This document shows, in pieces, positions 1-40,538 of a stretch of 54,521 bases of DNA. Below the pieces are notes generated by a model that saw only the letters and a program-made list of their open reading frames with translations, did not search any database and had not been told where the DNA came from. Every line of letters starts with the position of its first letter. The stretch's first letter is position 1. A program made the position numbers and the translations under genes. The DNA is from Verrucomicrobiota bacterium (GTDB taxonomy: Bacteria > Verrucomicrobiota > Verrucomicrobiia > Limisphaerales > UBA9464): the NCBI GenBank assembly GCA_947454705.1, contig CANGKZ010000036.1:1-54521 (forward strand). Direction: 5' to 3'.

Positions 1-298
1 GCGATGTCACCGGTCGGTGCGACGCCACGAACGGTTTCGAAAGCGGTGTCGACGCTCCGCTTTGCCACCGCACTCCACAATCGCGCGGCTCGGCGTCTGT
101 GCGGTTGCTTCCACGTTTCGGCCGGCGACTTCACGCGGGGTCCGCAGACGAATATGGGGCGTGGGTGGAACCCCGCCCTCCACCGGGAGATGAGTTTCGA
201 TCTTCGATCTTCATTCCGGCGGCGCCTACGCAGAGGAAGGATCGATCTCAGATCGCCTGTTTGACACTCGCGGCAGCCACGCCTAGAGACACAGGAAC
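1..298. repeat. Composite dispersed repeat at left edge (REP-like element plus module B)
   Basis: No gene is supported before 299. Bases about 36-78 carry a REP-like element (CGAAAGCGGTGTCGACGC ... CCACCGCACTCC) that recurs at 38311-38350, 39904-39949 and 40205-40250. Bases about 125-186 carry a second module (TTCACGCGGGGTCCGCAGAC and onward) that recurs inverted at 40079-40138. The two modules are in the same order and spacing in both places, so the copy here is an inverted counterpart of about 40040-40250. Short open frames in this stretch are accidental. Confidence 0.7.
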
Positions 299-26374: not shown

Positions 26375-26749
26375 TTGAGTTGGTTTGGACGGAAACACAG
26401 GCGGGCGTATTGCGGGAAAAGTTGGACCGGATGCGAAAAAGGGCAATCCAAAGCCGGGCGGAGAGTTCGAATTTGGAATTTGGAATTTGGAAAGCAGGAA
26501 AGCAGGAGGGACGGAAGCAGGAGAAAGATACCCTTAGGCTGGGGGAGCTTCGGGTGCCTGTGAGCTCGGCGGTGTTTCGTCCCGCATTCAAAAGCGCCAG
26601 GGGACTGGCGCACTCCATGACGCTGTCGCGACTCCAACACCCGCGCGGCGAAATCCGCCAGGTCTTGGACTGCGGTAGTCCTCTACCGCTTTGAACGGAG
26701 CACGCGCCGCCAACCCGAAAACCGGTCGCAGAAACCGCTGTTTTCCGGG
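26375..26749. repeat. Gene-free stretch with GAATTTG repeats and a REP-like hairpin
   Basis: 375 bases without a supported gene. 26467-26490 is GAATTTG repeated three times in tandem. It is followed by GAAAGCAGGAAAGCAGGA, which also occurs after GAATTTGG at 38143-38168. The string CACTCCATGACGCTGTCGCG lies at about 26610. 26672-26689 is a perfect hairpin, GCGGTAG-TCCT-CTACCGC, inside GGACTGCGG...CCGCTTTG, which matches the outline of the REP elements at 38183, 39904 and 40205. Confidence 0.6.
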
Positions 26750-29446
26750 TCAATTCGAGGACGCCTCACGAACGCGGAAGTACTGCGTCGCCGATTCGGG
26801 CGACACCGGCACCAGCCAACCCGTTTCCGGGAATCGGCCCACGATGGACTGCGCCACGGTCCACGGCCCCGCGGGATCCGCAGCCGAAAGCACCTCGTAT
26901 CCGACCGCATTGCGCCCCGGCCAACTCAGCCGGATTCCCCCCGTGCCCGGGCCCGAAACCGCAGCTTGTACCAGAAGTGGTGCATCGAACTGCACCGGAT
27001 TCGTCCCAATCCATTGCTCCACCACGTTGGAGTAGCCGTCCAGGTCGGGATCCTCCGCGGGGCGCGCCGACAATCCACCAAAGGCCTTTTGCTCCCACGC
27101 GTCGTCCAATCCGTCGGCATCGGTGTCCAAAATCGGAACACCCCGCAGCGTCAGCACCACGGAATCGACCGATCCGGTCATTCCCGGGGCCTCGTCGGTG
27201 ACCTCGACCGTCCACGTTCCAACGCTCGATTCGCCCAGATGCATCGCGGACTGATACGTCCACGACGCCGGAACAGCCTGAGTTCCCCCGCCCGGCCGGT
27301 TCAACACGCTGAGCGTTCCTGCCGGGGATCTCAGCGTGACCCGCAGGTCCTGCAATCGCGGATGATGCCAATTCATGTGAACTTCGACGTGTTCCAGCGA
27401 CAGCATCTGGCTCACGGAAAAGGTCCAGCGCGCGGGATTGAGTTGGAGTTTCGCGCGCACGCCCGAGGGGCTGGCGATCCACGACTTGAGGGTGTCGCCC
27501 GAGGCGCGACCAATCTGCACGGCGGGAATGCGGACGAATCCGGTGTTGCGCAGGATCGATCGGTCATCAGTCCCCTGCGTCGCCTGCACGAGGACAAACG
27601 CAGCGCCGGCATCGGCCGCTGCATCGATCGCCGACGCGATGGATGCGGTGCCTCCCGGAATCAGCAGGCCGTAACTGCCCGCGGCGGGCGCGGGCACCGG
27701 AAGCTGCCCTCCGGCGTACACAGGCAATTCAGCCGTCGGTCGGTCGACGTGCACTCCCACCGAACCGGCTGCACCAAATCCGATATGACCCGCAGGAACC
27801 GCATCGCCCGCTGGAAGAACGCGGAGGCCGTCATCGGGAATCGGCTGGGCGATGGCGTTGGTCCAGGAGAGGACGGTCGCGGGCGGACGCGGGTTCCAAA
27901 TTTGGGCAATCCTCACGGCCTGTCCGGCATCGGGAATTCCGAACCCCACATTGGGGCTCACGCGAAATCCGGCGCCGTTGGTTTGCAGGGCCGGATCCGC
28001 GAGGTCCACATGACGCGCAGAGACGGCGAGGATCTGCTGCACATCACGCCAGCCGAGCTCGGGACGCGCCGACAACATCAGCGCCACAATCCCCGCCACC
28101 TGCGGCGCCGCGGCTGACGTACCATAAAACCCCGAGGAACCGAATGCATAGTCCCACAGCGCGGGGTCGTTGGGATTCGCAGTGGAATTCGCCCCGCGGC
28201 TTCCCAGTCGGTCGGTGGTGAACAGCCCCGGCGATGCGGAATCGGTCGGATCCCCACCCATCGCCGCCAGCCAAACGCAGGCCCCCGGCGTGCTGTAGCT
28301 GGCTACGCGACCGTCGTTGCGCACCGCGGCGACGGTGATTTGCCGGTAGTCCGACGCGTAGGCATCGAGGTTCGCATCGCCGACCCCGGCGGCCAAACTG
28401 TAGTCCGTGGTCCGCGTGTTGCCCGAGGAGCGGATGAGCACCGTGCCGCGTCCGCCGCGGCCCGCAGTGACCGCGTTGGAAATGGCGAGCGATTCCACGA
28501 GGCTCATGGCGAGCGGTTCGAATTCGGAATTGCCCCAGGAATGGTTCTGAACGGCGACTCCGTTGGTTCCGCCCAGGTGACGCCCGTTCTCGAACATCTG
28601 CGCGAGCTCATCATCGGCCGGAGCATTGTCCACGGCGTCGAAGATCACCCAACTCAACCACCCGCTTTCCGGAGCCACGCCAGAGATGCCCAATCCATTG
28701 CCTCCTCGCGCGGACGCGATTCCCGCCACTGAGGTGCCATGGGTTTGAAAAATCGTGGAATGCCCGCCGGTCGGAAGCCCGGTGACGAAATTGAAATGAC
28801 CGGCCACCGCGTTGGGCGAAAGGTCCGGATGCGCGACCTCCACGCCATCGTCCACCACGGCCACGGTGACGCCGCGCCCCCGGCTCCATGGCCACGCCGA
28901 ACGAACCCGAAGATCCGGCGGGCCCGGGGGCAGCCCCGCGATGGGATCCGCAGTTTCGAGGTAGGTCTGTCCGGTGAAATACGGATCGTTGGGCGCCGGT
29001 GCGTAGGCAAAGTGACGGGCCAGACGCTTGCGGAAAATCGGCACCGCAGCCTCCACCTCCGGAAGCCGCGACCACGCCTCGGCCAAACGCGAGGCAGCGA
29101 GGGGATCGGAAGCTTCGAGCAGCACGGTCCGGTCATCGAGAACACGAACCAGTTTCAGATTTGGTACATCTCCAAGGAGCGACTCCCGAGTGGCGGCATC
29201 GGCCCGGAGGACGAGGCGCGAGGTGATGACCGAAGTGCGCGTGCCTCCGGGCATGGTTGCGAGCCAGGTGCCGGAGGTGGCATTGGAACTCACGATCCAG
29301 TTCTGGAGTTCCGGCGCGCGGAACTGCATCTGAAGCGTGGTTCCGGTTCCAGGCTTCACCGCCGCGGCGCAAAGCGAATCCGCCGCGGACAGCAGCAGCC
29401 CCAGGGAAAGGGCTGCGAGAGCATTGCGCGTGAAGTGACCGGGCAC
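26750..29446 (-). CDS. Secreted subtilisin-like (S8) protease with P domain and calcium-type repeats
   Basis: 898 aa from a GTG at 29446; no ATG fits, and this start leads straight into the signal peptide (FTRNALAALSLGLLLSA). A pro-region of about 130 residues precedes the protease. Catalytic Asp lies in VAVVDDGVEVAHPDL, His in THGTSVAGIASA and Ser in YGTSAAAPQVAGI, with the oxyanion Asn in SSGNT. A kexin/furin-type P domain follows (VEVHMNWHHPRLQDLRVTL, ESSVGTWTVEVTDEAPG). Then come acidic repeats of thrombospondin type 3 kind (LDTDADGLDDAWEQ, DPDLDGYSNVVEQ) and the C-terminal module ending QYFRVREASSN. It degrades or matures extracellular proteins. Divergent from recF. Both upstream sequences share 126 bp. 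Confidence 0.93.
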   Translation of the reverse strand: MPGHFTRNALAALSLGLLLSAADSLCAAAVKPGTGTTLQMQFRAPELQNWIVSSNATSGTWLATMPGGTRTSVITSRLVLRADAATRESLLGDVPNLKLVRVLDDRTVLLEASDPLAASRLAEAWSRLPEVEAAVPIFRKRLARHFAYAPAPNDPYFTGQTYLETADPIAGLPPGPPDLRVRSAWPWSRGRGVTVAVVDDGVEVAHPDLSPNAVAGHFNFVTGLPTGGHSTIFQTHGTSVAGIASARGGNGLGISGVAPESGWLSWVIFDAVDNAPADDELAQMFENGRHLGGTNGVAVQNHSWGNSEFEPLAMSLVESLAISNAVTAGRGGRGTVLIRSSGNTRTTDYSLAAGVGDANLDAYASDYRQITVAAVRNDGRVASYSTPGACVWLAAMGGDPTDSASPGLFTTDRLGSRGANSTANPNDPALWDYAFGSSGFYGTSAAAPQVAGIVALMLSARPELGWRDVQQILAVSARHVDLADPALQTNGAGFRVSPNVGFGIPDAGQAVRIAQIWNPRPPATVLSWTNAIAQPIPDDGLRVLPAGDAVPAGHIGFGAAGSVGVHVDRPTAELPVYAGGQLPVPAPAAGSYGLLIPGGTASIASAIDAAADAGAAFVLVQATQGTDDRSILRNTGFVRIPAVQIGRASGDTLKSWIASPSGVRAKLQLNPARWTFSVSQMLSLEHVEVHMNWHHPRLQDLRVTLRSPAGTLSVLNRPGGGTQAVPASWTYQSAMHLGESSVGTWTVEVTDEAPGMTGSVDSVVLTLRGVPILDTDADGLDDAWEQKAFGGLSARPAEDPDLDGYSNVVEQWIGTNPVQFDAPLLVQAAVSGPGTGGIRLSWPGRNAVGYEVLSAADPAGPWTVAQSIVGRFPETGWLVPVSPESATQYFRVREASSN

Positions 29447-29572
29447 ACAGCGACCGTAGCGAAGCCCGGTCGGGGCGGCTACTCCGGGTCTTTGGAGGAT
29501 GCGGCAGCCGGCCACTTTATTCGGTCGCGAGCCGCCCTTTTCATCCGATGCGGGTTGTCCCATCGTCCGCCC

Positions 29573-30658
29573 GTGCATCTGGCCCGACTGCGTCTCCGCG
29601 ACTTCCGGAATTACTCCCGGATGGATGCGGATTTTGCCCCGGGCTTCCACGTGTTCCTCGGCGACAACGCGCAGGGGAAGACCAATCTGCTCGAGGCGAT
29701 CTACCTGCTGGCAACGCTGCGATCCTTCCGCGGCGTGGGCGGGGCGCAGATGATTCGGCACGGGGCGCCGGGATATTTTGTCGGCGGTTCGGTGGTGGGA
29801 AGCCAGGCCGGTGAGATCAAGGCCTGGTGGTCGCCCAAGGAACGAAAACTTTCGCTGAACGGCACGCCGGTCCGACGGCTGAGCGATTACCTCGGGGTGC
29901 TGCGTGCGGTGGTGTTCTGCACCGAGGATCTGCAACTGGTTCGCGGCAGCGGCCGGGTGCGTCGGCGGTTTCTCGATCTGTTGCTGAGCCAGACGGATCC
30001 CGGCTATTTGCCCGTGTTGTTGCGCTACACGCAGGCGTTGAAGGCGCGGAATGCGCTGCTGAAACAGCCGCGAATCGATGAGGATCAACTCGCGGCCTTC
30101 AGTGGTGAATTGATCGATCTGGGAACGCGGATCGTGGCGGCGCGACGCGCGCTGGTGCCCAAGATTTCTCCGCTCGCGCGGCTGGCGCATCGACGCATCG
30201 CGGTGGAGGCCGATGACCTGAAACTGGAGTACGCGCCGAATTTGAAGGGCGATTTCGCCGTGGCCCTCGCGCAGAGCCGCGCACGCGAACGCGCGATGCG
30301 CACGACGGTGGTGGGGCCGCATCGGGATGATCTCACGCTGCTGGTGAACGATCGTCCGGCCGATGAATTCGGCAGCGAGGGACAGAAGCGCACGCTCGCG
30401 GTGGCCTTGAAGATTGCCCAAGCGGAGTACCTGACCGGCATTCACGGACAGCCGCCGGTGTTGCTGATCGACGATGTGATGGGGGAGCTCGACGCGCGGC
30501 GTCGCGCGGGATTGATGCCGCTCCTGCAACAGGTGCATCAGGCCACGGGCCAGGTGTTCATGACCTGCACGGAGGAAAGCTGGCCCAAGGAATTGTCCCA
30601 ACGGCTGGTGCGGTGGGAGGTGCGCGGCGGGACGGTGGCACCGCAACGCGCCGGGTGA
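29573..30658 (+). CDS. recF: RecF DNA repair/recombination protein
   Basis: 361 aa, usual RecF length. The start is a GTG (29573), which gives the classical N-terminus VHLARLRLRDFRNY. Walker A is GDNAQGKTN (about residue 33). The D-loop/signature region is SEGQKRTLAVALKIAQ (about 270), and Walker B is PVLLIDDVMGELD (about 300). RecF loads RecA onto gapped DNA with RecO and RecR. The gene is not next to dnaN or gyrB as in many bacteria; its neighbours are a protease and a LamG protein. Confidence 0.95.
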   Translation: MHLARLRLRDFRNYSRMDADFAPGFHVFLGDNAQGKTNLLEAIYLLATLRSFRGVGGAQMIRHGAPGYFVGGSVVGSQAGEIKAWWSPKERKLSLNGTPVRRLSDYLGVLRAVVFCTEDLQLVRGSGRVRRRFLDLLLSQTDPGYLPVLLRYTQALKARNALLKQPRIDEDQLAAFSGELIDLGTRIVAARRALVPKISPLARLAHRRIAVEADDLKLEYAPNLKGDFAVALAQSRARERAMRTTVVGPHRDDLTLLVNDRPADEFGSEGQKRTLAVALKIAQAEYLTGIHGQPPVLLIDDVMGELDARRRAGLMPLLQQVHQATGQVFMTCTEESWPKELSQRLVRWEVRGGTVAPQRAG

Positions 30659-30928
30659 AGCTTCCTGCACGGCGGGGCGCTGAAACCGTCGACGCGTTGG
30701 AATCAAATCCGGGCGGGGATGCTCTCCCTGGGAACTTGCGGGCCTTTGCGTCGGCCTGGTGCGCCAACGGAGGGACGTGATTTCTCAATATCCAACCTGT
30801 TCCGAGCGAGAAGATTCCGAGGTCACCCGAGAAATCGGTTTGGATCGACTTCTCGCGTTGCCGTATCGTCGCCCGATTCCTCTGCGGGGAGGAACCGACG
30901 AGGAGCATTTTATCCCCAAGACCATCTC

Positions 30929-32560
30929 ATGAAAGGCCTGCGTCCGTTCATTCTCGTCCTGATGTTCATTGGCCTGCGCTGTTCAGAACAGGGCGCCTCC
31001 GCCAACCAGGTCTTCGTTCCGGGAGACTCGGCAGGGTACGTCAGCATACCGAATCACCCCCAGCTGCAGAACCCCACGGAGTTCACGATTGAGTTCTGGT
31101 TAAATCCATCCCGGCGGGACGGCCGACCGATCTCGAAAGGGGACGGATTGAACGACTTCACCGATCAGTCGTATCACTTCGATTTGAGAGAGCTGGACTA
31201 TTTTAGGGCGGAGATATTTTGGGAATTCGATCCAACCAAGGCCGGGTATGACGTCCTCAGAGCCCCCATCCCTTTGGGACAATGGACCCACGCGGCAGTG
31301 GTGTTCTCGAGCAGACAAGGCTCCCTGAGTCTGTTCTTAAACGGAGAATTAGTCGCCCAGAACACGGGATTGGAGGGCCGGCTCCTTCGTCAATCCACGA
31401 AACCGTTGATCTTCGGGTGGACGCCTCCGTTTTTTGATACGTTCAGCAATGCGCGCCTGGATGAAGTGCGAATCTGGGATGTGGCCCGAGAGCCAGCGAA
31501 CATCGTCCGCGACATGAGCTGCACGTTGACCGGTGCCGAGCCACATCTGGTCGCCTACTGGAACTTTGAGGGCGTCGCCGTAACAGACCTCACTGGGAAT
31601 GGTCACGACGGGATCCTGTATCAGAACGCGCAACTTGCACCGATGCCGGAGGATGACTCGATCCACGCCGGGGGCTGCGGCGGCTCGCTGCCCATCACAC
31701 CTCGCTTCGTCATTGTGGATGAGACGCCGGGAGGTGGTCAGATTTCCGTCACTCCGCCTCGTTCGAGCTTCGCCATAAACACGGTCGCAACCCTGACAGC
31801 GCTTCCAGATGTCGGGTGGACGTTTCTCGATTGGAAAGGCAACGCTGAAAGCACTGCAACGACGATCACGCTCCGGATGACCGGTGAGAAACGAGTGCGG
31901 GCCCGGTTTGGTACCGTCATTAAGCCTCAGAAGAACGGAAACGGAACGGTCACCCTGGATCCGCCGTCCCCTCCCTATCCCTACGGAACCACGGTCCGTG
32001 TGACCGCCACGCCGGATGCCGGCAACTACTTTACCGGTTGGTCGGGAATTGTCGGCGGCACTCGGAATCCGCTTACGTATGTCGTAAAGGATGGCACGCC
32101 GCTAATCCGGGGTTCGTTCGCAGCCCTGCCTCCGGATCAAAACACGCTGACAGTCACTCACCAGGGGCTTGGAAGAACCACGGTCACTCCGCAAGCCAGC
32201 TACTATGCACCGGGAGAACCGGTGACTGTCACCGCCACGGCCGATTCGGGGCAGGCATTCCTGGGTTGGGCTGGCGACGCCGCTGGAACCGATAACCCGC
32301 TGAGTGTGACCATGGACAAAAGTCGCAGTCTCCGCGCGCTGTTCACGGAACGTCCCCGGCTGGCGATCCAGTCCATCGGCCGGGAAGGCGTGCTCGTCAC
32401 CCTCGTGGGAGCCACAAAGGCAACGTACGCCATCGAAACCTCCACCGACCTGGCAACATGGACCCCGCACACGACGCTTCAAACCAGCTATGGAGAGGCG
32501 CAAGTGATCGAGCTGCCGGTCGGAGATCAGCCGCTGTTTTACCGGGTCATCAGTCAGTAA
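30929..32560 (+). CDS. Secreted LamG-domain protein with InlB-type repeats
   Basis: 543 aa. ATG 30929 starts a signal peptide (KGLRPFILVLMFIGLRCSE). A concanavalin-like LamG domain follows at about 30-225 (GYVSIPNHPQLQNPTEFTIE, LFLNGELVAQNTG, LDEVRIWDVAR). Then come three divergent InlB B-repeat-like units (about 240-475): TALPDVGWTFLDWKGNAEST, VTATPDAGNYFTGWSGIVGG, and VTATADSGQAFLGWAGDAAG, each ending in a short F-rich strand (VRARFG, IRGSFA, LRALFT). The tail is the shared C-terminal module (YAIETSTDLATWTPH ... FYRVISQ). It is probably a cell-surface or secreted binding protein. An earlier in-frame start at 30719 would add a region without signal-peptide character and is not preferred. Confidence 0.85.
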   Translation: MKGLRPFILVLMFIGLRCSEQGASANQVFVPGDSAGYVSIPNHPQLQNPTEFTIEFWLNPSRRDGRPISKGDGLNDFTDQSYHFDLRELDYFRAEIFWEFDPTKAGYDVLRAPIPLGQWTHAAVVFSSRQGSLSLFLNGELVAQNTGLEGRLLRQSTKPLIFGWTPPFFDTFSNARLDEVRIWDVAREPANIVRDMSCTLTGAEPHLVAYWNFEGVAVTDLTGNGHDGILYQNAQLAPMPEDDSIHAGGCGGSLPITPRFVIVDETPGGGQISVTPPRSSFAINTVATLTALPDVGWTFLDWKGNAESTATTITLRMTGEKRVRARFGTVIKPQKNGNGTVTLDPPSPPYPYGTTVRVTATPDAGNYFTGWSGIVGGTRNPLTYVVKDGTPLIRGSFAALPPDQNTLTVTHQGLGRTTVTPQASYYAPGEPVTVTATADSGQAFLGWAGDAAGTDNPLSVTMDKSRSLRALFTERPRLAIQSIGREGVLVTLVGATKATYAIETSTDLATWTPHTTLQTSYGEAQVIELPVGDQPLFYRVISQ

Positions 32561-32605
32561 GCGGGCGGCCGATGCGGCCAATGCCTTGACTGGGATCTCC
32601 GTCGC

Positions 32606-33628
32606 TCAGCGGCGCGCAGAGAGGATCGGCGAAAGTTTCGCGATCACGCGGTCCACAGAAAGCCGGTTCAGGCACGCCAGTTTCTCCGGATTCCGGCAGG
32701 ACGCCTTGAGGCACGGCGCGCACTCGAGGTCCACGCGCAGCACGCTGTCGAGCTGCCGATACGGCCCAGTCCGCGTGGGCTCGGTGGGTCCAAACAGGGC
32801 CACCACCGGCACGCCGAGCGCCACCGCCACATGCATGGGGCCGGTGTCGTTGGTGACCAGGACGTCGCATCGACGAATCCATTCCACCATTCCCGGGAGG
32901 GACAGTTGCCCGGTGAGATCGAGGCAACGGGGTCCGGCGATGGCGGTGATTTGTTCGGCGAGAGGACGATCCCCGGTGTCGCCAAGCACGGCCACGCCGA
33001 GGGAATCATCGAGCGCGAGGAGGCGTCGGGCGAGTTCACCGAAGCGTTCCGCGGGCCAGCGTTTGTTCCACCAGCGGGCCCCGGGTTGGAGCGCGATCCA
33101 GCGTCGGCCATCGCGCGGCCACACCGAATCCACGATCACGGCGGCTTCTTCGTTGCGGGGCATCCACTCGAAGTTGGAATGCACGGGCACCTGAAGATGC
33201 CGGAGCACCTCGAGGTACCAATCCACCGCGTGGGTGTTGAAGGAGGGGCGAGGAACCCGGAGGTCGTACAGCGCGGTCGCGCCTTCGCGGGCATCGTCGA
33301 GACCGATGGTCAATTCGCCGTTGGCCAGCCAGGCGATGGCACCGCTGCGGGCGAGGCTTTGGAGATCGATCACCCAGTCGTAGCGCTCGGCGCGCATTTT
33401 GCGGATGCACGAGACCACGGATCCGAAGCCGGAGGGATTGCCCCAGCGTTTGCGATCGAAGGGGATAAGGCGGTTGATGTCGCGATCGCCCTGCAGGAGC
33501 GGCATGAGGCCGCGGAGGATCCACCAGTGGATTTCGGCCTGCGGAAAGCGCTGACGCAGCAGCCGAACCACGGGCATGGCGTGGACCACGTCTCCGAGGG
33601 AGCTCGGCTTGAGAATCAGGATTTTCAC
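32606..33628 (-). CDS. Glycosyltransferase family 9 (heptosyltransferase-like)
   Basis: 340 aa from GTG 33628, which gives the family N-terminus VKILILKPSSLGDVVHAMPV. Other landmarks are WVIDLQSLARSGAIAWL, WIALQPGARWWNKRWP, and the donor site VTNDTGPMHVAVALGVPVVALFGPTEPTRTGPY. GT9 enzymes add heptose (or a related sugar) from an ADP-sugar to the lipopolysaccharide core. The actual sugar here is not certain. A C-terminal cysteine cluster (ECAPCLKASCRNPEKLAC) is unusual and may bind a metal. It is the last gene of a minus-strand envelope cluster starting with lpxI. Confidence 0.88.
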   Translation of the reverse strand: MKILILKPSSLGDVVHAMPVVRLLRQRFPQAEIHWWILRGLMPLLQGDRDINRLIPFDRKRWGNPSGFGSVVSCIRKMRAERYDWVIDLQSLARSGAIAWLANGELTIGLDDAREGATALYDLRVPRPSFNTHAVDWYLEVLRHLQVPVHSNFEWMPRNEEAAVIVDSVWPRDGRRWIALQPGARWWNKRWPAERFGELARRLLALDDSLGVAVLGDTGDRPLAEQITAIAGPRCLDLTGQLSLPGMVEWIRRCDVLVTNDTGPMHVAVALGVPVVALFGPTEPTRTGPYRQLDSVLRVDLECAPCLKASCRNPEKLACLNRLSVDRVIAKLSPILSARR

Positions 33629-33727
33629 GACAGGACTTCTACCGGGCAATACGCCCCAACACGGGAAACAAGGAAACTGGGAAACACCGCAAAGGGACTT
33701 TGGAACAGGCCCCTTCGCACGGTCCGT

Positions 33728-34450
33728 TTACTTGCCCGAGGCCAGACGATCCGCGAGACGCTCCGGGAGTCCGGCGGCGCGAATCTTCTTCTGCTGGGCG
33801 GCGATGTCGTAATCCAGCCGGCGCAACTCAATGGTCTGCTGCGCCAGGTCGTAAATCACATACGAGGCCTTCGGGTTTCCGTCGCGGGGCTGCCCCACGC
33901 TGCCGACGTTCACGAAGTACTTCTTGCCGGCTTCGACGCGAAACTTGGAGTAGGTCCCGCCCCGGACTCCGGAGTCGCGGATGAAGGCGACCGGAACGTG
34001 GGTGTGACCGAAGAAGCAGACCTGCGTGTTCTGGTAGGTGAAGCTGGCGGCGGCCTCGAGCTTCTCGAACACGTAGCCCCAGCGATGCGGCGCATCGAGG
34101 GTGGCGTGGACGATTGAGAAATTGGCCACCAGGCGGAAATACTTCAGGTCGCGCAGCCACTTGCGGTCATCGGCGGTGAGCTGGTTGCGGCTCCAGCTGA
34201 CGGCTTCCGCGGCGGCGTCGTTGAATCCTTCCGGATCCTCGTCCGCACCGATGTATTCGTCGTGATTGCCCTTAACGGTGGGGATGTTCATGCCACGGAC
34301 GATATCGAGGCACGCCTTGGGGTCCGCCCCATAGCCGACCACATCGCCCAGACAGGCCACGTGGGTGCAGGCCTGCTGCTTGATGTCGTCCAGCACCACC
34401 TGAAAGGCATCCAGGTTGGCGTGAATGTCCGCTATGACTGCGTATTTCAT
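33728..34450 (-). CDS. Calcineurin-like metallophosphoesterase
   Basis: 240 aa. Metal-binding motifs are DIHAN (residues 8-12), GDVVGYG (about 35), GNHDEYI (about 61), the HATLD region (about 115), and GHTHVP (about 148). The GDVVGYGADP and NVGSVGQPRDGNPKASY wording marks the group of small cytosolic phosphoesterases often linked to diadenosine or other phosphate esters. The substrate cannot be decided. It starts 4 bp after the acylphosphatase gene, so the pair is translated together. Confidence 0.88.
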   Translation of the reverse strand: MKYAVIADIHANLDAFQVVLDDIKQQACTHVACLGDVVGYGADPKACLDIVRGMNIPTVKGNHDEYIGADEDPEGFNDAAAEAVSWSRNQLTADDRKWLRDLKYFRLVANFSIVHATLDAPHRWGYVFEKLEAAASFTYQNTQVCFFGHTHVPVAFIRDSGVRGGTYSKFRVEAGKKYFVNVGSVGQPRDGNPKASYVIYDLAQQTIELRRLDYDIAAQQKKIRAAGLPERLADRLASGK

Positions 34451-34454
34451 CGAA

Positions 34455-34733
34455 TTACCGCACTATTTCAAATCCACGGAACTCCCCCAGGGGCTCCGAC
34501 TCAAATTCCACTTCATCACGAATCATCGGGCCGAGCCCGCATTCGCGGATGCCTTGGCGGAATTCCACCAGTTCATCTTTCTGCCCCTCGGCGATCAGTT
34601 CCACCCGGCCATCGGCCAGGTTTCGAACGATTCCCGTCACTTCAAATCCGGCCGCCAGGCGTTTCACCTGATACCGAAATCCCACTCCCTGCACCTTGCC
34701 AGAGTAGAACACTTGAACACGACGGCGCTTCAT
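34455..34733 (-). CDS. acyP: Acylphosphatase
   Basis: 92 aa from ATG 34733, the usual size. An upstream in-frame ATG at 34763 would add 10 residues without family match. The phosphate-binding loop is SGKVQGVGFRYQV with the catalytic Arg in GFR; the catalytic Asn is in GIVRNLADGRVELIAEG. It hydrolyses acyl phosphates such as acetyl phosphate or carbamoyl phosphate. It lies 4 bp upstream of a phosphoesterase on the same strand. Confidence 0.95.
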   Translation of the reverse strand: MKRRRVQVFYSGKVQGVGFRYQVKRLAAGFEVTGIVRNLADGRVELIAEGQKDELVEFRQGIRECGLGPMIRDEVEFESEPLGEFRGFEIVR

Positions 34734-34881
34734 TCCAGACCCGATTCCGCATGAATTCCGCATCCAATCGACTCAACGGTCGGACCTAGGAAGCCTCACG
34801 GCAGGCCGGCGACTTAGCCATATCCGTGCCGAAGTAAGCAACGGTTTTGTTCCTTCTCTCCTTGGACGCTGCCGAAACGGT

Positions 34882-35718
34882 TCAAGATACACTCTTTTCC
34901 GCAAAAAAGGTCAGAACCGTGACTTTTCTCTCTTTTGCGACGGATTCGAGCTCCGGCCGATCGAGCAACAGGGTCCGGCCCGCCTCCACCGCAAGGGCGC
35001 GAATTCCGTGGTCGGCGCAGGTCTGGACGGTCCGGGGTCCGATGCACGGGATGTCGAACCGCATGTCGTGCCCCACTTTTGCCGTTTTCACCGCCACGGC
35101 CCCGCCGGAGCTCCCGGCCAGGCGGCCCCCGCGCTCGAGGCAGGCATCGGTGCCCTCAAATCCCTCCACGGCGAGCGTGGTGCCGTCCTTCACCACCACA
35201 CTTTGACCGATTTCGAGCCGGGAAATCTCCTTCGCGATCCGCGCGCCGTAATCCACCACCGCCTTGAGCTCGGGGGTGACGGCCGGGCCCACGGAGTACC
35301 CGGGGCCGGGCATCCAGGCCTGGAGCCACGGGGTGGATTCGATCAGGCGGACGCCGTCCTTTTCCAATTCGTCGGCAATGGCACCAAAAATGGTGTGGGC
35401 ATTCTTCTCCTTCAGGCGAAGGAGCAGCCCCATGGCCCTGAAATCCGGTCGAACATCGAAGAGATTCCGCGGTGCGATCTGCCCGAGCATGACGCATTCG
35501 GTGATGCCGCGCTGGGTGAAGGCCCCAATCATTTTGGACAATTGCCCCACCCGGAGCCAGACCACCTCGTCCACCTTGCTGGCCAGGATGGGGTCGGTTT
35601 CACCCTCAAACCCCACGGCAACCACCCGGCGTCCCTGGCGGCGGGCTTCATCGGCAAAGACCAGCGGCAACGATTTGGAACCGGCGATCAACCCGAGCGG
35701 GCTTGAAGAATTGGACAT
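34882..35718 (-). CDS. lpxI: LpxI: UDP-2,3-diacylglucosamine pyrophosphatase
   Basis: 278 aa, usual length. N-terminal domain: LGLIAGSKSLPLVFADEARR and VVAVGFEGETDP. C-terminal domain (DUF1009): LGPAVTPELK-like block GPGYSVGPAVTPELKAVVDY, SVVVKDGTTLAVEGFEGTDA, GRLAGSSGGAVAVKTAKVGHDMRFDIPCIG, and LAVEAGRTLLLD. LpxI cleaves UDP-2,3-diacylglucosamine in lipid A synthesis and replaces LpxH where LpxH is absent. This shows the organism makes lipid A and frees the metallophosphoesterase at 11014 for another job. First gene of the envelope cluster; divergent from the protease gene at 35862. Confidence 0.95.
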   Translation of the reverse strand: MSNSSSPLGLIAGSKSLPLVFADEARRQGRRVVAVGFEGETDPILASKVDEVVWLRVGQLSKMIGAFTQRGITECVMLGQIAPRNLFDVRPDFRAMGLLLRLKEKNAHTIFGAIADELEKDGVRLIESTPWLQAWMPGPGYSVGPAVTPELKAVVDYGARIAKEISRLEIGQSVVVKDGTTLAVEGFEGTDACLERGGRLAGSSGGAVAVKTAKVGHDMRFDIPCIGPRTVQTCADHGIRALAVEAGRTLLLDRPELESVAKERKVTVLTFFAEKSVS

Positions 35719-35861
35719 GCAGCGAGGAAATCGAAATGCGTAATGGACCCGGCCAGCATCATGCGCGGGCGGATGCGGGTCAAACCGAGTTCTGCCCCGC
35801 GCCGAACCCTTGCAACACGGCCGAACTCAGGCAGCGTTTCCCGGTGCGAATCGTGCATCCC

Positions 35862-36956
35862 ATGTCCCGCCTATCCCGGCTGCAAGCCGCCCTCGGCGGA
35901 TTGGCGGCCTGGGGAGCCACGACGCACGCGATGGCGTTGATCTTTTTTGGAACGGCGGATCCCGCGTTTCACACCACGGCCCCCACGGGAGAGTATTCCG
36001 AGTCCGGATGGCAGTGGCTGGTCGATGGTGGATTCTGCGCCACGGTCATTGGACCGCATCACGTCGTGTCAGCGCGGCATCTCGGGCTGACTGCTGGGAT
36101 CCAATTTCGATACAAGGGGCTGCTCTACGAGGCAATCCGGGTGGCCTCCCCGGCAACGGGCGATTTGAGTCTCCTGGAAATCGCCGGCCGAATGCCGGAT
36201 GCGGCTCCGAGGTACCGGGGCACCAACGAAATCGGGTCCACGCTCTTCATGACCGGACGCGGGACTCCCCGCGGGGAACCGGTATACGGTCCTCCGCCCG
36301 ACGGCACGCGCCTTCAAGGATGGCGATGGGGCAACGCCCCCGGGGATCTGAGGTGGGGCACCAATTCGGTTGCGGAGACCTATCTGGCCAAACCCACGGA
36401 TCCGATCACCGGCGACTACCTCGTGTCCTATTTCACGGATCAGGGCGGAAATGATCTGACCACGCTGTCGATCGGGGACTCGGGAGGGGGCGGTTTCATC
36501 CGGGACGACGACGGCACGTGGAAACTTGCCGGGGTCAACTACGGCGTTGAAGCCGTCTTCAATACGACCACCACAGGCGACGGGTTTTACGCAGCGCTGT
36601 TCGACCGCACCGGCTTCTACGAATTCGACGACGATCAAAAGGCCTGGATCATCGATCCCAGTCAGGCCGATCAACCAGGCACGAGCTTTCTACTCACGCG
36701 GATTTCCTCCTACAACGATTGGCTCGACACCGAACTGGCCCGACCGCCGGAAACCGATTGGCCCCGCCTGATGTCATCGGATTCCGTAGATGGCCCGTAC
36801 CTCGAACACCCCGCCTACTCGGTGCTGATCAAATCCAAATCCTTCTCGGTGTCGGCCGGCGACGCCCGGCGTTTCTTCCGGCTCGAGAGCGATCAACCCC
36901 TCACCGTGAAGGCCCCGTCGCTTCAGAAGGGAATGCTGATCTTCACCTACGAGTAG
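35862..36956 (+). CDS. Secreted trypsin-like (S1) serine protease, paralog 1
   Basis: 364 aa from ATG 35862. Signal peptide about 1-25 (LQAALGGLAAWGATTHAMA). The mature N-terminus is FFGTADPAFHTTAPTG, identical in outline to the next gene. Catalytic His lies in VSARHLGL, Asp in ATGDLSLLEIAG, and Ser in SIGDSGGGGF, giving a complete H-D-S triad of the trypsin fold. There is no disulfide pattern of animal trypsins. The C-terminal 65 residues (VDGPYLEHPAY ... ARRFFRLESDQ ... LIFTYE) are a version of the shared secreted-protein module. It probably acts outside the cell. The next gene, starting 29 bp downstream, is a tandem duplicate. Confidence 0.85.
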   Translation: MSRLSRLQAALGGLAAWGATTHAMALIFFGTADPAFHTTAPTGEYSESGWQWLVDGGFCATVIGPHHVVSARHLGLTAGIQFRYKGLLYEAIRVASPATGDLSLLEIAGRMPDAAPRYRGTNEIGSTLFMTGRGTPRGEPVYGPPPDGTRLQGWRWGNAPGDLRWGTNSVAETYLAKPTDPITGDYLVSYFTDQGGNDLTTLSIGDSGGGGFIRDDDGTWKLAGVNYGVEAVFNTTTTGDGFYAALFDRTGFYEFDDDQKAWIIDPSQADQPGTSFLLTRISSYNDWLDTELARPPETDWPRLMSSDSVDGPYLEHPAYSVLIKSKSFSVSAGDARRFFRLESDQPLTVKAPSLQKGMLIFTYE

Positions 36957-36985
36957 GCCCCGACGGTCCCCCCGCTTCAAAGCAG

Positions 36986-38116
36986 ATGCCCCACCGGATC
37001 CCCAGTTTCTTGAAACGAACAGGCGCAAGCGTCCGTTCGCGCATGATGTTCCTCATCACGTGCGCGCTTCTCCTGCGGATCGAGCCGCTGCGGGCGATTA
37101 CCTTTTTTGGTACCGACAATCCGGCGTTTCACACCACGGCGCCGACCGGTGTTTTCACGAACAGCGGGTGGCAGTGGCAGGTGTCGGGCGGGATCTGCGC
37201 CACGGCGATCGGTCCGCATCACCTGGCCACGGCACGGCACCTCGGGTTTAATCCTGGACTGGAATTCATCTACCAGGGACTTCGATACCGCGCGATTCGC
37301 GTCTCGTGGGCGGACACGGGGGATCTGGCGATGCTGGAAGTGGCAGGCAGGATCGGTTCGTTCGCCCCGTTGTATCGCGGGACCAATGAGGTCGGAAAAA
37401 CCATCGTCATGCATGGCCGGGGAACCCAGCGGGGCGATCCTGTCTACGGCCCGCCGCCCAATGGAACGCAGGTTCGCGGGTGGCTCTGGGGCGGATCGGA
37501 CTTCCTGCTGCGCTGGGGCACCAACCGGGTCGAGGACACCTACGATACAACGCCGAAGGATCGAATTACCGGGAGTTACCTGATCTCGCATTTCTCAAAC
37601 CGAGGCGGATCGGACCTCGCCACCTTTGCGGTGGGGGATTCAGGCGGCGGATCGTTTCTCCGGGACACCGACGGCGCATGGAAACTCGCGGGGGTGAATT
37701 ACGGGGTCGAAGCACAGTTCAATAGCTCGACGAACGGCGCCGGATTCTACGCCACACTTTTTGATCGGCGCGGATTTTACACCTTCGATGAAGATCTCCA
37801 GGCGTGGACGATCGACCCCGATAAAATCAACGAGCCCCGAACCGAGCTCTACATGACGCGCATTTCCTCCAATCTGGCGTGGATTGATTCGCAGTTGGAG
37901 CGCGACCCCGCAGTGGACTGGCCGATCCTTGAATCAGCCGCTAACGCCACCGGACCGTTCGCCGAACACGAGGCCTATGCGGTCACCGTGGATCTCAAAC
38001 AAATCGTGATCAACGCAGGGCCGCAGAAGGCGTTCTTCCGGTTGCGCAGCACAACCTCGCTTAGGCTTAAAGGCCCCACGGTGAAGGACGGGCAGTTTGT
38101 GTTTACGTACGAGTGA
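36986..38116 (+). CDS. Secreted trypsin-like (S1) serine protease, paralog 2
   Basis: 376 aa from ATG 36986; ATG 37043 (MMFLITCALLLRIEPLRA) may be the true signal-peptide start. The mature part begins FFGTDNPAFHTTAPTG. Catalytic His lies in ATARHLGF, Asp in DTGDLAMLEVAG and Ser in AVGDSGGGSF, all intact. The protein is colinear with paralog 1 over its whole length, including the end (VNAGPQKAFFRLRS..., FVFTYE). The duplication is old enough that only about half the residues look identical by eye. The pair is likely one transcription unit. Different substrate choice is possible, since the loops between His and Asp differ. Confidence 0.85.
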   Translation: MPHRIPSFLKRTGASVRSRMMFLITCALLLRIEPLRAITFFGTDNPAFHTTAPTGVFTNSGWQWQVSGGICATAIGPHHLATARHLGFNPGLEFIYQGLRYRAIRVSWADTGDLAMLEVAGRIGSFAPLYRGTNEVGKTIVMHGRGTQRGDPVYGPPPNGTQVRGWLWGGSDFLLRWGTNRVEDTYDTTPKDRITGSYLISHFSNRGGSDLATFAVGDSGGGSFLRDTDGAWKLAGVNYGVEAQFNSSTNGAGFYATLFDRRGFYTFDEDLQAWTIDPDKINEPRTELYMTRISSNLAWIDSQLERDPAVDWPILESAANATGPFAEHEAYAVTVDLKQIVINAGPQKAFFRLRSTTSLRLKGPTVKDGQFVFTYE

Positions 38117-38142
38117 GGGGTAATCCGTCGGCACATCGGGTT

Positions 38143-38168
38143 GAATTTGGAAAACAGGAAAGCAGGAA
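38143..38168. repeat. GAATTTGGAAAACAGGAAAGCAGG repeat
   Basis: The unit after GAATTTGG (AAAACAGG, then AAAGCAGGA) also occurs at about 26483-26510 next to a triple GAATTTG run. Both copies lie between genes. Function unknown. Confidence 0.5.
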
Positions 38169-38182
38169 CGAGAGGCCAGTTG

Positions 38183-38353
38183 TTTTGGAGTGCGGCGGGA
38201 AGCGGAGCGCCACGCCGCTTTGGTCGGCACACCGGGGGGAGACCGCTTCGCTCGCAACCCCGGGTCAAGTCGCGAAGGTTGCCGGTCGGTTTCCCTCGTT
38301 CGCGCGAACTCGAAAGCGGTGTCGACGCTGCGCTCTGCCACCGCACTCCAAAA
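38183..38353. repeat. REPIN-like element, copy 1 (two REP hairpins head to head)
   Basis: 171 bp with perfect 13-bp inverted ends TTTTGGAGTGCGG / CCGCACTCCAAAA. Next to each end sits a hairpin: on the left GCGGCG...CGCCGC, on the right GCGGTG...CACCGC (on the other strand). The stems differ at one base pair that is kept paired. A second copy of the whole element lies inverted at 40205-40374, so the two frame the oxidoreductase gene. Confidence 0.7.
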
Positions 38354-38382
38354 GGACGCCGGGTTTTGAAATCGGCATGAAA

Positions 38383-38413
38383 AAACCCCGGCTCCGCGAG
38401 GGAGACGGGGTTT
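38383..38413 (-). terminator. Rho-independent terminator of the oxidoreductase gene
   Basis: Stem AAACCCCG (38383-38390) / CGGGGTTT (38406-38413), 8 bp, followed on the minus strand by TTTTTT before CATGCC. It lies 26 bp past the stop codon at 38439. Confidence 0.8.
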
Positions 38414-38438
38414 GAAGAGTGGGAAACGCGGAGGCGAA

Positions 38439-39734
38439 TCAGACCACCTTGCTCTTGCCCGGGACCGCCACCGGGTAGAAGCCGTCCGGACCCGCGAGGG
38501 TCTTCGGAACGGTATCCCAGGAATAGCTGTCGGGGTGAAGATCCACGCTGGAGTTCAGCGCATCTTCCCAGGTGATTTCCGTGCCGGAGTAGGTGGCGAG
38601 ACGGCCGAGGATGGCGGTCATCGTCGACTTGGCCCCGTTGAACGCTTCGTTGTACGGCTTGTCGGCGCGGATGGCGGCGAACAGGTCGTCGTGTTCGACC
38701 TGATACGGATCCTTGTCGCGACCCTGGTTGCGCCAGGCGCTGCCGCCGGTCGGCTTGATGATGTAGCCGCTGACGTCGCAGGTGCCCTTGGTGCCAACCG
38801 CGTGTTCGCTGACGCTCGACCAGCAGCCGCGGATGTGACGGCACTGGCTGAAGTTCACGGCACCGCTCTCGTAGAAGAATTCCACGGCGTGGTGGTCATA
38901 GATTTCGCCGAATTCCTTGCCGGTGCGGACCTGGCGACCGCCCATGCCGCGGGCCTTGACTGGGTAACCACCGAGCACCCAGTTGGCGACGTCGAGGTTG
39001 TGGATGTGCTGTTCGACGATGTGGTCACCGCCGAGCCACACGAAGTAATACCAGTTGCGCATCTGGTATTCCATTTCGGTCTGGCCTTCCTTGCGGGGAT
39101 TGACCCACACGCCGGCGTCGTTCCAGTAGGTGCGCATGGTGTGGATGTCACCGATGGCGCCGTCGTGCAGACGCTTGATGGTTTCGAGGTAGCCCGCCTG
39201 GTGATGACGCTGGAGGCCGATGCCGACCTTGAGGTTCTTCTTCTTGGCTTCCTCGGCGGCGGCCAGGAAGCGGCGGACGCCCGGAGCGTCGGTGGCCACC
39301 GGCTTCTCAGCGAAGACGTGCTTGCCCTGCTTGACCGCTTCTTCGAAATGGATGGGGCGATAGCCCGGAGGGGTGGCGAGGATCACCACGTCGGCCAGGG
39401 CGATGGCCTTCTTGTAGGAATCGAGGCCCACGAACTGGCGTTCCGCCGGCACGTCCACCTTGGGTCCCTGCGCGTTGCGGAGGTTGTTCAACGCGCCGTC
39501 CATGCGGTCCTTGAAGGCATCGGCCACGGCCACGAGCTTCGTGCCCGGGACGTTGAGGGCCTGATTGGCGGCGCCGGATCCGCGGCCACCGCAGCCGATG
39601 AGCGCGATCTTGAGCTCGTCGCTGCCCGCAGCGTAGGCGAAGCGGTTGGCAGCGAGGGCGCCCACAGTGGCGACACCCGCAGTGGTGATGAAGTTGCGCC
39701 GGGAGAACGGCGTGATGATGGAGGACTCGTTCAT
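38439..39734 (-). CDS. Tat-exported Gfo/Idh/MocA family oxidoreductase
   Basis: 431 aa. The N-terminus carries a twin-arginine signal (SRRNFIT at residues 11-17, then TTAGVATVGALAANRF). The Rossmann domain starts with KIALIGCGGRGSGAA (about 42-56). The family motif EKPVATD lies near 140 and the catalytic-site region HHQAGYLETIKRLHDGAIGD near 170. A later block is WYYFVWLGGDHIVEQHIHNL and FGEIYDHHAVEFFYES. These enzymes oxidise or isomerise sugars or cyclitols with tightly bound NAD(P). Export through Tat implies a folded, cofactor-loaded periplasmic enzyme, common in verrucomicrobia. The substrate is not known. It is framed by the two REPIN-like repeats. Confidence 0.92.
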   Translation of the reverse strand: MNESSIITPFSRRNFITTAGVATVGALAANRFAYAAGSDELKIALIGCGGRGSGAANQALNVPGTKLVAVADAFKDRMDGALNNLRNAQGPKVDVPAERQFVGLDSYKKAIALADVVILATPPGYRPIHFEEAVKQGKHVFAEKPVATDAPGVRRFLAAAEEAKKKNLKVGIGLQRHHQAGYLETIKRLHDGAIGDIHTMRTYWNDAGVWVNPRKEGQTEMEYQMRNWYYFVWLGGDHIVEQHIHNLDVANWVLGGYPVKARGMGGRQVRTGKEFGEIYDHHAVEFFYESGAVNFSQCRHIRGCWSSVSEHAVGTKGTCDVSGYIIKPTGGSAWRNQGRDKDPYQVEHDDLFAAIRADKPYNEAFNGAKSTMTAILGRLATYSGTEITWEDALNSSVDLHPDSYSWDTVPKTLAGPDGFYPVAVPGKSKVV

Positions 39735-40204
39735 GGTAATGATTGGCTCAACTTCGGACGCCCAAACAGGCGCCGCGATTCAAGCCGGATAAAACTCAGG
39801 ACTGGGATTCGAGGAAACGCTACGGGACGCAGTGGGGAAACATCAAGGGCCAAGCTTCACGCGAATGAAGCGGCTGAATGAAAACCAACGACCAACGAAG
39901 CGTCCTTTTGGAGTGCGGTGGCAGAGCGCAGCGTCGACACCGCTTTCGAACCCGTGTGTCGTGCAACACCGACCGGCAACCCCAATAAATCGGCGGAAAA
40001 CCATTAACGCGCGGGTGATCCGCCTCGTCCCCTCGGCGGCTACAGGAATCAACAATCGCCGATCGAAGATCGCACCACGGTGGAGGGCTTGGTTCCACCC
40101 AAGCCCCATATTCGTCTGCGGACCCCGCGTGAAGTCGCAGACCGCCAGCCAGACCTCACCGCGGAGGCGCAGAGACGCAGACGTGAACACGCGATGCCGC
40201 GCAA

Positions 40205-40374
40205 TTTTAGAGTGCGGTGGCAGAGCGCAGCGTCGACACCGCTTTCGAGTTCGCGCGAACGGGGAAAACCGACCGGCAAACTTCGCGACTTGGCCCAGGG
40301 TTGAGAGCGAACCGGTCTCCCCCCGGGGTGTGCCGACAAAAGCGGCGTGGCGCTGCGCTTCCCGCCGCACCAAA
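40205..40374. repeat. REPIN-like element, copy 2 (inverted)
   Basis: It matches 38183-38353 in reverse orientation along its full length with scattered changes. Its hairpins are GCGGTG...CACCGC and GCGGCG...CGCCGC (on the other strand), in the reverse order of copy 1. The middle shares TTCGCGCGAAC, ACCGACCGGCAA, CTTCGCGACTTG and GTGTGCCGAC with copy 1, allowing for strand. Confidence 0.7.
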
Positions 40375-40488
40375 GCGACTGGCAACTCGGTAGCGATTGG
40401 TGAAGGCGAACCGGAAGAGTCTCCACCCTCTTTAGCAATTGATCTTGAACTCACCACCGCGAGGCCGCGAGGCCCGCAAAAAGCAAAA

Positions 40489-40518
40489 ACCCGAGACGGG
40501 GTTGAGCCCGGCTCGGGT
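40489..40518 (-). terminator. Rho-independent terminator of the cytochrome/formylglycine-type gene
   Basis: Stem ACCCGAG (40489-40495) / CTCGGGT (40512-40518) with a GC-rich loop, followed on the minus strand by TTTTGCTTTTTGC. It lies 21 bp past the stop codon at 40539. Confidence 0.75.
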
Positions 40519-40538
40519 GAGATTGGGAAGCCTGAACC

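What the first reader, a model, noticed from the sequence alone, without database searches (positions are those of the whole stretch)
26672..40374. REP-like palindromic family with covarying stems
Elements share the frame GGAGTGCGG...CCGCTTT. Stems read GCGGTG/CACCGC (1-85 region, 38311, 39904, 40205), GCGGCG/CGCCGC (38187, 40350) and GCGGTAG/CTACCGC (26672). The fifth pair changes T-A to C-G with pairing kept, which suggests selection for the hairpin. Two elements facing each other make the 171-bp REPIN-like unit with 13-bp perfect ends. REP families in other bacteria are mobilised by RAYT transposases; none is in this window.
Basis: partly seen in the sequence, partly recalled or inferred. 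Interest (0 to 1): 0.55.

Follow-up and report, generated by a model that had tools for sequence, protein, structure and literature searches.

The report
GGAG-tagged REPINs with their own transposase
Short hairpin repeats scattered between the genes of this Verrucomicrobiota bacterium belong to a widespread family of tiny mobile DNAs that sit beside, and are probably copied by, a dedicated transposase, and they carry a recognition tag different from the tags found described.

Summary
The elements belong to two REPIN populations of this genome: A/B doublets (218 strict matches, reversed control 0) and C/D doublets (65, control 0). The window holds no RAYT, but the genome has a 189-aa HYH-type RAYT on another contig, lying between A/B units. 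Relatives of this RAYT, picked by protein similarity, carry hairpins of the same frame (GGA[G/C]TGCG...CGCT[T/A]T, matched in relaxed form) within 600 bp in 78 of 80 loci, under record names from several phyla. Stems covary: 341 of 372 inner pairs are Watson-Crick against 188.6 in shuffles. The sites compared are empty in congeners. The tag is GGAG or GGAC, not GT[AG]G or CGTC. The fourth tag base tracks RAYT residue 27 in strand beta-1 (G/A with GGAG, S/R with GGAC, with exceptions); kinship-corrected support is only suggestive. Guide pairing was not supported. Verdict: a REP/REPIN-RAYT system with a new tag, a new variant of a known kind.

The parts
40..76 (-). REP type A (family 1), head (GGAG) at 76; a B partner at the usual spacing would lie beyond base 1 of the contig
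26591..26616 (-).
26667..26692 (+). REP type C (family 2), GGACTGCGGTAGTCCTCTACCGCTTT
26591..26692 (.). family 2 REPIN core, D(-)/C(+), tags inside, 50-nt spacer (50 nt in 5 of 5 C-/D+ pairs of the sample); bases beyond the tails are also partly conserved
38183..38353 (.). family 1 REPIN, 171 bp, B(+)..A(-), tags outside, 13-bp perfect ends TTTTGGAGTGCGG; absent from the corresponding gap in congeners G064 and G006
38187..38221 (+). REP type B (family 1)
38313..38349 (-). REP type A (family 1)
39910..39946 (+). REP type A (family 1), no B partner found next to it
40209..40245 (+). REP type A (family 1), head AGAG
40339..40373 (-). REP type B (family 1), decayed head (TTGGTGCGG)
40205..40373 (.). 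family 1 REPIN A(+)..B(-); it lies in the 761-bp unaligned gap 39784-40544, which is 91 bp without REPs in congener G064

Best explanation
The elements are REP hairpins arranged as REPIN doublets: non-autonomous mobile DNA copied in trans by a REP-associated tyrosine (Y1/HUH) transposase. In family 1 the cognate enzyme is the 189-aa RAYT at G000:C20:469-1038, which sits between A/B units. The enzyme most likely binds the single-stranded hairpin through its foot (TGGA[G/C]T next to the GCG/CGC stem base), tolerating changes in the upper stem as long as pairing is kept. It then cuts beside the hairpin, probably at the nearly constant C|T of the CGC-TTT tail or at a CT/TT site 5' of the tag, and joins the unit at a new, mostly intergenic place. 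Family 2 (C/D) is a second population that goes with a different RAYT of the same clade, present in congeners G006 and G269 but not found in this draft assembly. Shown here: repeat families, doublet geometry, covarying stems, RAYT linkage under record names of several phyla, positions that differ between congeners, coincidence of hairpin class with RAYT clade. Inferred: binding, cut site, single-strand mechanism and current mobility.
For: 218 strict family-1 matches (113+/105-), reversed-pattern control 0; 65 family-2 matches, control 0. In 1,095,926 sampled bases: 58 copies, 45 in groups; 13 A+/B- pairs, 5 C-/D+ pairs all with a 50-nt spacer; reversed control 0 (the C7 and C20 parts of the sample were picked knowing that they hold copies). 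RAYT: NF047646 84.1 bits, cut-off 80, HYH motif, preceded by two 158-bp B..A units (the first with a decayed B head) and followed directly after its stop by an A half-unit of 77-78 bp, 93.5-96.2% alike; a dispersed unit (C2:118375) is 93% identical over 158 bp. Of 116 genomes of the order, the 30 with this RAYT all have 6 or more frame matches (median 58.5), the 86 without have median 4.0; Mann-Whitney p 1.6e-11. Stems: 341 of 372 inner pairs against mean 188.6, max 220 in 1000 arm shuffles. Hairpin length class changes 8 times on the RAYT tree against 24.5 shuffled, min 18. Gaps without REPs at the corresponding places of G064 and G006. Fold: best PDB match 4er8, RAYT bound to a REP hairpin, E 1.5e-8, TM 0.56/0.63.
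Against: No transposition or cleavage was seen. Of the 86 genomes without this RAYT, 36 have 6 or more frame matches and 17 have 20 or more, so the repeats can exist without a detected enzyme (draft genomes, lost RAYT, or another enzyme). 10 of 43 further RAYT loci had no frame hairpin found, and of 26 NF047646 loci fetched first, 10 had none (at least five of these are not of the HYH clade). A prediction of the guide-pairing model, GT beside GGAC tags and CT beside GGAG tags, was not met in the 5' flank (GT 92 of 188 vs 58 of 108, p 0.47; CT 102 of 188 vs 68 of 108, p 0.18), and the 3' tail begins with CT for both. With an over-inclusive ORF set (100 aa and more) 36 of 58 REP midpoints fall inside ORFs, coverage 90.9%; with ORFs of 250 aa and more 7 of 58 do, coverage 81.8%. 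The fold match is moderate.
Confidence: 0.87

Rival explanations
1. The hairpins are mainly RNA or DNA regulatory structures (terminators, mRNA 3'-end stabilisers, gyrase or other protein sites) kept in place by selection; RAYT linkage is incidental.
For: Strong hairpins, mostly outside long ORFs (7 of 58 midpoints inside ORFs of 250 aa or more, coverage 81.8%); of the 21 gap copies that could be classed, 12 lie between convergent ORFs, against 115 of 483 random gap positions.
Against: RAYT linkage in 78 of 80 loci; the compared sites are empty in congeners whose shared gene is 83-86% identical in DNA; doublet spacing and part of the interior are conserved; the only Rfam match of the window is a tRNA; the tail is only TTT.
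Confidence: 0.08
2. They are MITEs of a DDE-type IS whose inverted repeats are TTTTGGAGTGCGG, and the RAYT association is secondary.
For: 13-bp perfect inverted ends in the 171-bp unit at 38183-38353.
Against: Each end is a complete hairpin of its own with a directional tag and tail; the same kind of hairpin occurs singly and in tags-inside doublets; RAYT linkage and clade match. I did not search for a DDE element with these ends.
Confidence: 0.03
3. The only PF01797 hit of the genome, the IS200-type TnpA at G000:C26:62346-62693, mobilises the elements.
For: Same HUH/Y1 superfamily; the only PF01797 hit in the genome.
Against: It scores as IS200/IS605 (NF033573 77.5 bits, cut-off 55; NF047646 24.4, cut-off 80) and has no strict frame element within its 3.3-kb locus (3 one-mismatch heads against 1.54 expected).
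Confidence: 0.02

Closest known systems
GTAG-tagged REPs with RAYT/TnpAREP (Nunvar 2010 PMC2817692; Di Nocera 2013 PMC3733652; Bertels and Rainey 2011 PMC3116915; passages seen)
   Same: 20-40-nt hairpins in many mostly intergenic copies, asymmetric tetranucleotide at the 5' foot, hetero-doublets (REPIN/BIME), an HUH/Y1 RAYT flanked by the same hairpins.
   Different: The tag is GGAG or GGAC with one T before the stem instead of GTAG/GTGG; [quoted passage not shown]
TnpAREP subclass 2.8 (PMC6006769, passages seen)
   Same: HYH variant of the HUH motif, similar size, YIHYNP-like Y motif (ours mostly YVHQNP).
   Different: That subclass is described from Cyanobacteria with GT[AG]G long REPs; the clade here is mostly Verrucomicrobiota with GGA[G/C] tags. 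Whether the two are sisters was not tested.
E. coli TnpAREP (PDB 4er8)
   Same: Best fold match and only sequence-profile hit in the PDB at E 0.01.
   Different: Of the guide-contact residues named in PMC6006769, W94 and E100 correspond to W112 and E/D117, but Q95, H101 and R104 face F/H113, T/S118 and mostly T121 in the alignments; this mapping rests on one profile alignment.
CGTC-tagged REPs (PMC3733652, passages seen)
   Same: Tagged hairpin doublets.
   Different: Different tag and reported to lack a dedicated transposase.

Membership tests
REP / REPIN (RAYT-linked hairpin repeats) | short palindrome in high copy number | tested here: met
REP / REPIN (RAYT-linked hairpin repeats) | mostly extragenic | tested here: met
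   7 of 58 midpoints in ORFs of 250 aa or more vs 81.8% coverage; an over-inclusive set of 100 aa and more gives 36 of 58 vs 90.9%
REP / REPIN (RAYT-linked hairpin repeats) | inverted doublets | tested here: met
   13 A+/B-, 5 C-/D+, 4 A-/B+ in the sample
REP / REPIN (RAYT-linked hairpin repeats) | RAYT gene flanked by the same hairpins | tested here: met
   family 1: in this genome; clade: 78 of 80 loci. Family 2: not in this genome, but in congeners G006 and G269
REP / REPIN (RAYT-linked hairpin repeats) | mobilised by the RAYT | not testable with these tools
   needs a cleavage or mobility assay
GTAG superfamily of REPs | GTAG or GTGG tag at the 5' foot | tested here: not met
   tags are GGAG or GGAC; not filed under this superfamily
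CGTC superfamily of REPs | CGTC tag, no dedicated transposase | tested here: not met
RAYT / TnpAREP | NF047646 above curated cut-off | tested here: met
   84.1 bits, cut-off 80
RAYT / TnpAREP | HUH motif and catalytic Tyr | tested here: met
   NHYH 67-70 and Y132 invariant in 21 and in 39 rows; that Y132 is the catalytic one is inferred from the motif
RAYT / TnpAREP | low copy number, not multiplying like an IS | tested here: met
   one A1 match at E 1e-30 in this genome, at most 2 in the 30 carrier genomes; in the class sample one genome, G373, had 4 at E 1e-60
TnpAREP subclass 2.8 | HYH motif | tested here: met
TnpAREP subclass 2.8 | long canonical GT[AG]G REPs | tested here: not met
TnpAREP subclass 2.8 | proline-rich N-terminal domain; place in the tree with cyanobacterial members | not tested
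   no cyanobacterial members were fetched

The most novel reading that the evidence does not exclude
A natural recognition code: in this RAYT clade one residue of strand beta-1 (27 in the window genome's RAYT) reads the fourth base of the REP tag. A small residue (G/A) goes with GGAG, and S or R with GGAC. The code has switched repeatedly together with the repeats, so RAYT and REP coevolve base by residue.
Probability: 0.45. Interest if true: 0.72.

Novelty: new variant of a known kind. Interest (0 to 1): 0.52.

Why it matters
How a RAYT finds its own REPs and chooses where to cut is an open question; PMC8266576 (passages read) treats three enzymes, all with GTAG-type tags. Here is a large natural series of enzyme-hairpin pairs in which the frame is nearly constant while tag base four, stem and loop vary. 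It offers a concrete, testable specificity residue and an explicit negative result for simple guide pairing in the 5' flank. One genus also shows two REPIN populations, each with and without an enzyme in different species, which suits studies of how orphan REPIN populations persist. It would also help to annotate small repeats between genes of Verrucomicrobiota.

Tried and rejected
PF01797 as a RAYT probe missed the true RAYT and found an unrelated IS200-type enzyme. None of the 30 fetched PF01797 loci (L001 and L040-L068, four of them shorter than 2.1 kb) carried the strict hairpin; one (L058) had a lone GGAGTGCGG. NF047646 found the RAYT. A second NF047646 hit of this genome (G000:C30:39218, 77.5 bits, below cut-off, HLH rather than HYH) has no frame hairpin within its 7-kb locus. 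Of 26 NF047646 loci fetched had a frame hairpin (one of them, L121, far from the gene) and 10 had none; A1 was then built from 21 rows of the HYH clade, most of whose flanks I had already seen.

Guide pairing (GGAG with CT, GGAC with GT) was tested in the 5' flank and not supported.

Residue 27: found in a first set of 91 rows (S in 19 of 21 GGAC-only rows, G in 2; G 27, A 19, S 4 of 50 GGAG-only rows; one gene is in it twice, L149 and L109) and tried on 43 further rows (70 fetched, 25 dropped as at least 95% identical to the first set, 2 as internal duplicates). GGAG-only rows gave G/A in 20 of 20; GGAC-only rows gave R 4, S 1, G 1 of 6. The rule as first stated (S) was right in only 1 of 6; it holds in 5 of 6 if widened after the fact to S or R (Fisher about 9e-5, one-sided, by hand from these counts, not corrected for kinship; the four R rows are one clade). 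17 of the 43 rows had mixed tags (7) or no hairpin (10) and are not in these counts. On supported branches 4 independent pairs exist (2.7 for, 0.0 against on average). On all branches there are 13 pairs: 8.0 for, 0.0 against, rank 1 of 189 columns, each column coded by the residues commoner in GGAC rows of the same data; nominal p 0.008, not significant after correction for 189 columns. Exceptions: L165, L192, L197, L214 (GGAG, S) and L150, L205, L324 (GGAC, G).

Decay of the orphan family 2 against family 1 could not be judged: the copy thresholds truncate both. The alignment of the family-2 site with G095 and G269 was poor (in G269 the strand was wrong in my script); only the distances and the absence of a hit there are used. 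The gaps at 38.2 and 39.9 kb were compared with G064 and G006 only; in G269 and G095 the two sides lie apart.

Paper searches: GGAGTGCGG gave 108 papers, 30 listed, none of the 30 titles on REPs. Searches joining REP/RAYT terms with Verrucomicrobia listed Di Nocera 2013 as the only REP paper naming Verrucomicrobia (25 listed of 90, 237 and 402). Two further searches added no paper on GGAG tags among the 12 and 15 listed. I did not see supplementary files, figures, or papers outside the held library.
Full report
WHAT IS THERE. The window is C36:1-54521 of a 5.45-Mb draft genome in 80 contigs, 95.7% complete. Five strict frame matches lie in the window against 0.00 expected in 100 shuffles. The 9-base head alone is not informative: 27 matches with up to one mismatch against 27.5 expected.

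TWO FAMILIES. Genome-wide, GAGTGCGGN{15,35}CCGCTTT gives 218 matches (113/105) and its reversed control none; about 100 are listed, nearly all of two hairpin types, A (37 nt with the first G) and B (35 nt). A second search for the short hairpins gives 65 matches (30/35), control none, mostly of two types: C with tag GGAC and D with tag GGAG. In 1,095,926 sampled bases (contigs C1, C2, C4 and C6 whole, parts of C7 and C20 picked because they hold copies, and the window) I found 58 copies (A 31, B 15, C 5, D 7; reversed control 0), 45 of them in groups. A+/B- forms 13 pairs with the tags outside (spacer 86-149 nt), C-/D+ 5 pairs with the tags inside (spacer 50 nt in all five), A-/B+ 4 pairs with 20 nt, A+/A+ 2 and D+/D- 1. 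The 13 A/B units are 158-221 bp long, and the sequence just inside A is conserved as far as ACCGACCGG.

THE TRANSPOSASE. The genome has one of this clade at E 1e-30: G000:C20:469-1038, 189 aa, NF047646 84.1 bits with cut-off 80, motifs NHYH and YVHENAVKHG. It is preceded by two B..A units of 158 bp and followed, directly after its stop codon, by an A half-unit; a dispersed unit elsewhere (C2:118375) is 93% identical over 158 bp. The only PF01797 hit is an IS200-type enzyme without strict REPs nearby. A second, weaker NF047646 protein has none either.

CONSERVED FRAME. They come mostly from Verrucomicrobiota records, and also from records named Hydrogenedentes, Pyrinomonadaceae and other Acidobacteria, Phycisphaerae, BRC1, Lentisphaerae, Proteobacteria (names as in the records, nearly all MAGs). 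The frame with GGAG/GTAG-like tag lies within 500 bp in 53 of 80 (both sides in 35), against 8 of 694 distant 500-bp windows. Allowing any fourth tag base, GCG[G/C] and asking for five outer pairs gives 77 of 80 within 600 bp. L139 has tail CTAT, which makes 78 of 80; for L187 and L199 none was found. By sides: 130 of 154 against 16 of 533 distant windows. In a further set 33 of 43 had one.

COVARIATION. From the flanks of 123 RAYT loci, 60 of them contributing, come 93 distinct 26-nt hairpins, collected by frame only with no pairing asked of the middle. Their four inner pairs are Watson-Crick in 341 of 372 cells. Shuffled arms give 188.6 on average and at most 220, and slid registers 63-144. 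Pair 9-20 alone is G-C in 67 and C-G in 23. Within the genus, A reads GCGGTG/CACCGC here and GCGCCG/CGGCGC in G064, two compensatory changes.

RAYT AND REP TRAVEL TOGETHER. In 116 genomes of the order the RAYT was found in 30, all of which have 6 or more frame matches (median 58.5); the 86 others have median 4.0, with 36 at 6 or more and 17 at 20 or more; the reversed control has median 2.0, maximum 8. Hairpin length class changes 8 times on the RAYT tree against 24.5 in shuffles (min 18), and the tag base 11 times against 18.3 (min 13). The RAYT of this genome groups with L139 among enzymes with long hairpins, whereas most enzymes with short CCT-loop hairpins form a different group (45 of 88 inner branches are weak). 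In the same genus, G006's RAYT is flanked by GGAGTGCGGTAGTCCTCTACCGCTTT, the C stem with a GGAG tag, and G269's has GGACTGCGGCAGCCCTCTGCCGCTTT beside it. Family-2 matches are dispersed in G006, G269 and G095 but none is listed for G064 (list truncated). G095 has no RAYT of this clade at E 1e-30. So family 2 here looks like a population whose enzyme was lost or is missing from the assembly.

POSITIONS TURN OVER. The 761-bp gap with three REPs at 39784-40544 is 91 bp without REPs in G064 and 466 bp without REPs in G006; the REPIN at 38183-38353 is absent from the corresponding gap in both. The gene between them is 86% (G064) and 83% (G006) identical in DNA. The family-2 site at 26.6 kb has no family-2 match in the syntenic gaps of G095 and G269, which are each about 257 bp shorter (arithmetic from the coordinates). 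These are different species, so this shows turnover in the genus, not current movement.

HOW IT LIKELY WORKS. RAYTs of other groups bind single-stranded REPs, need the foot tetranucleotide to cut, and cut at C|T (one also at C|A) (PMC8266576, passages read). The model of the L139 RAYT (mean pLDDT 87.4) matches best the E. coli RAYT bound to a REP hairpin (E 1.5e-8, TM 0.56/0.63). The constant parts here, TGGA[G/C]T-GCG and CGC-T[T/A]T, are what such an enzyme would read, with C|T at the tail as the likely cut. The parse of the tag as GGA[G/C] plus one T is by analogy; TTGG or TGGA with a longer spacer, or a relation to the GAG that follows GTGG in some Pseudomonas REPs, is not excluded. If tag and cut site were coupled by base pairing, GGAC should go with GT; in the 5' flank it does not. 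Instead tag base four tracks residue 27 of the enzyme: GGAG-only 70 rows G 42, A 24, S 4; GGAC-only 27 rows S 20, R 4, G 3; the strongest of the columns compared. Residue 27 lies in strand beta-1 (21-28 in the model), and PMC8266576 states that GTAG contacts of the E. coli enzyme lie in beta-1, around beta-4 and at the C-terminus. Kinship-corrected support is 8.0 pairs for and 0.0 against out of 13, nominal p 0.008, not enough for 189 columns.

KNOWN OR NEW. REPs, REPINs and RAYTs are known, and Di Nocera 2013 already reports GTAG repeats in Opitutus terrae (Verrucomicrobia) (passages read). The word-start term GGAG has no occurrence in the main texts of PMC3733652, PMC12306157, PMC6006769, PMC8266576 and PMC2817692, nor anywhere in PMC8049555; in PMC3686654 and PMC3116915 it occurs, in the passages shown, only inside listed GTAG/GTGG-type REP sequences or 16-mers of them. 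I therefore rate this as a new variant: a GGA[G/C]-tagged REP frame shared across many lineages, with its own HYH RAYT clade.

Noticed in passing
G062:C129, G052:C141, G095:C61, G022:C19 and others: NF047646-type (RAYT-like) domains inside open frames of about 1000-1500 aa, in G062 and G052 two matches in one frame; such large proteins with Y1 domains look unlike ordinary RAYTs.
   Followed up: no
window 26475-26507 and 38143-38167: A short repeat (GAATTTGGAAAGCAGGAAAGCAGGA) stands next to both REP sites; similar stretches recur in congeners.
   Followed up: no
window 119-208 and 40055-40144: A 90-nt inverted repeat pair, 84% complementary, near family-1 A elements; possibly part of a larger composite unit.
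   Followed up: no
window 4180-4209 and 4294-4323: 30-nt inverted repeat, 90% complementary, around AACCACAGATGGACACAGAT.
   Followed up: no
L107 2654-3283, L117 2809-3549: RAYT open frames run through REP sequence at their start (MECG.., ALECG..), so annotated starts of such genes may be too far upstream.
   Followed up: no
window 17054-17127: tRNA gene, the only Rfam match of the window at gathering score.
   Followed up: no
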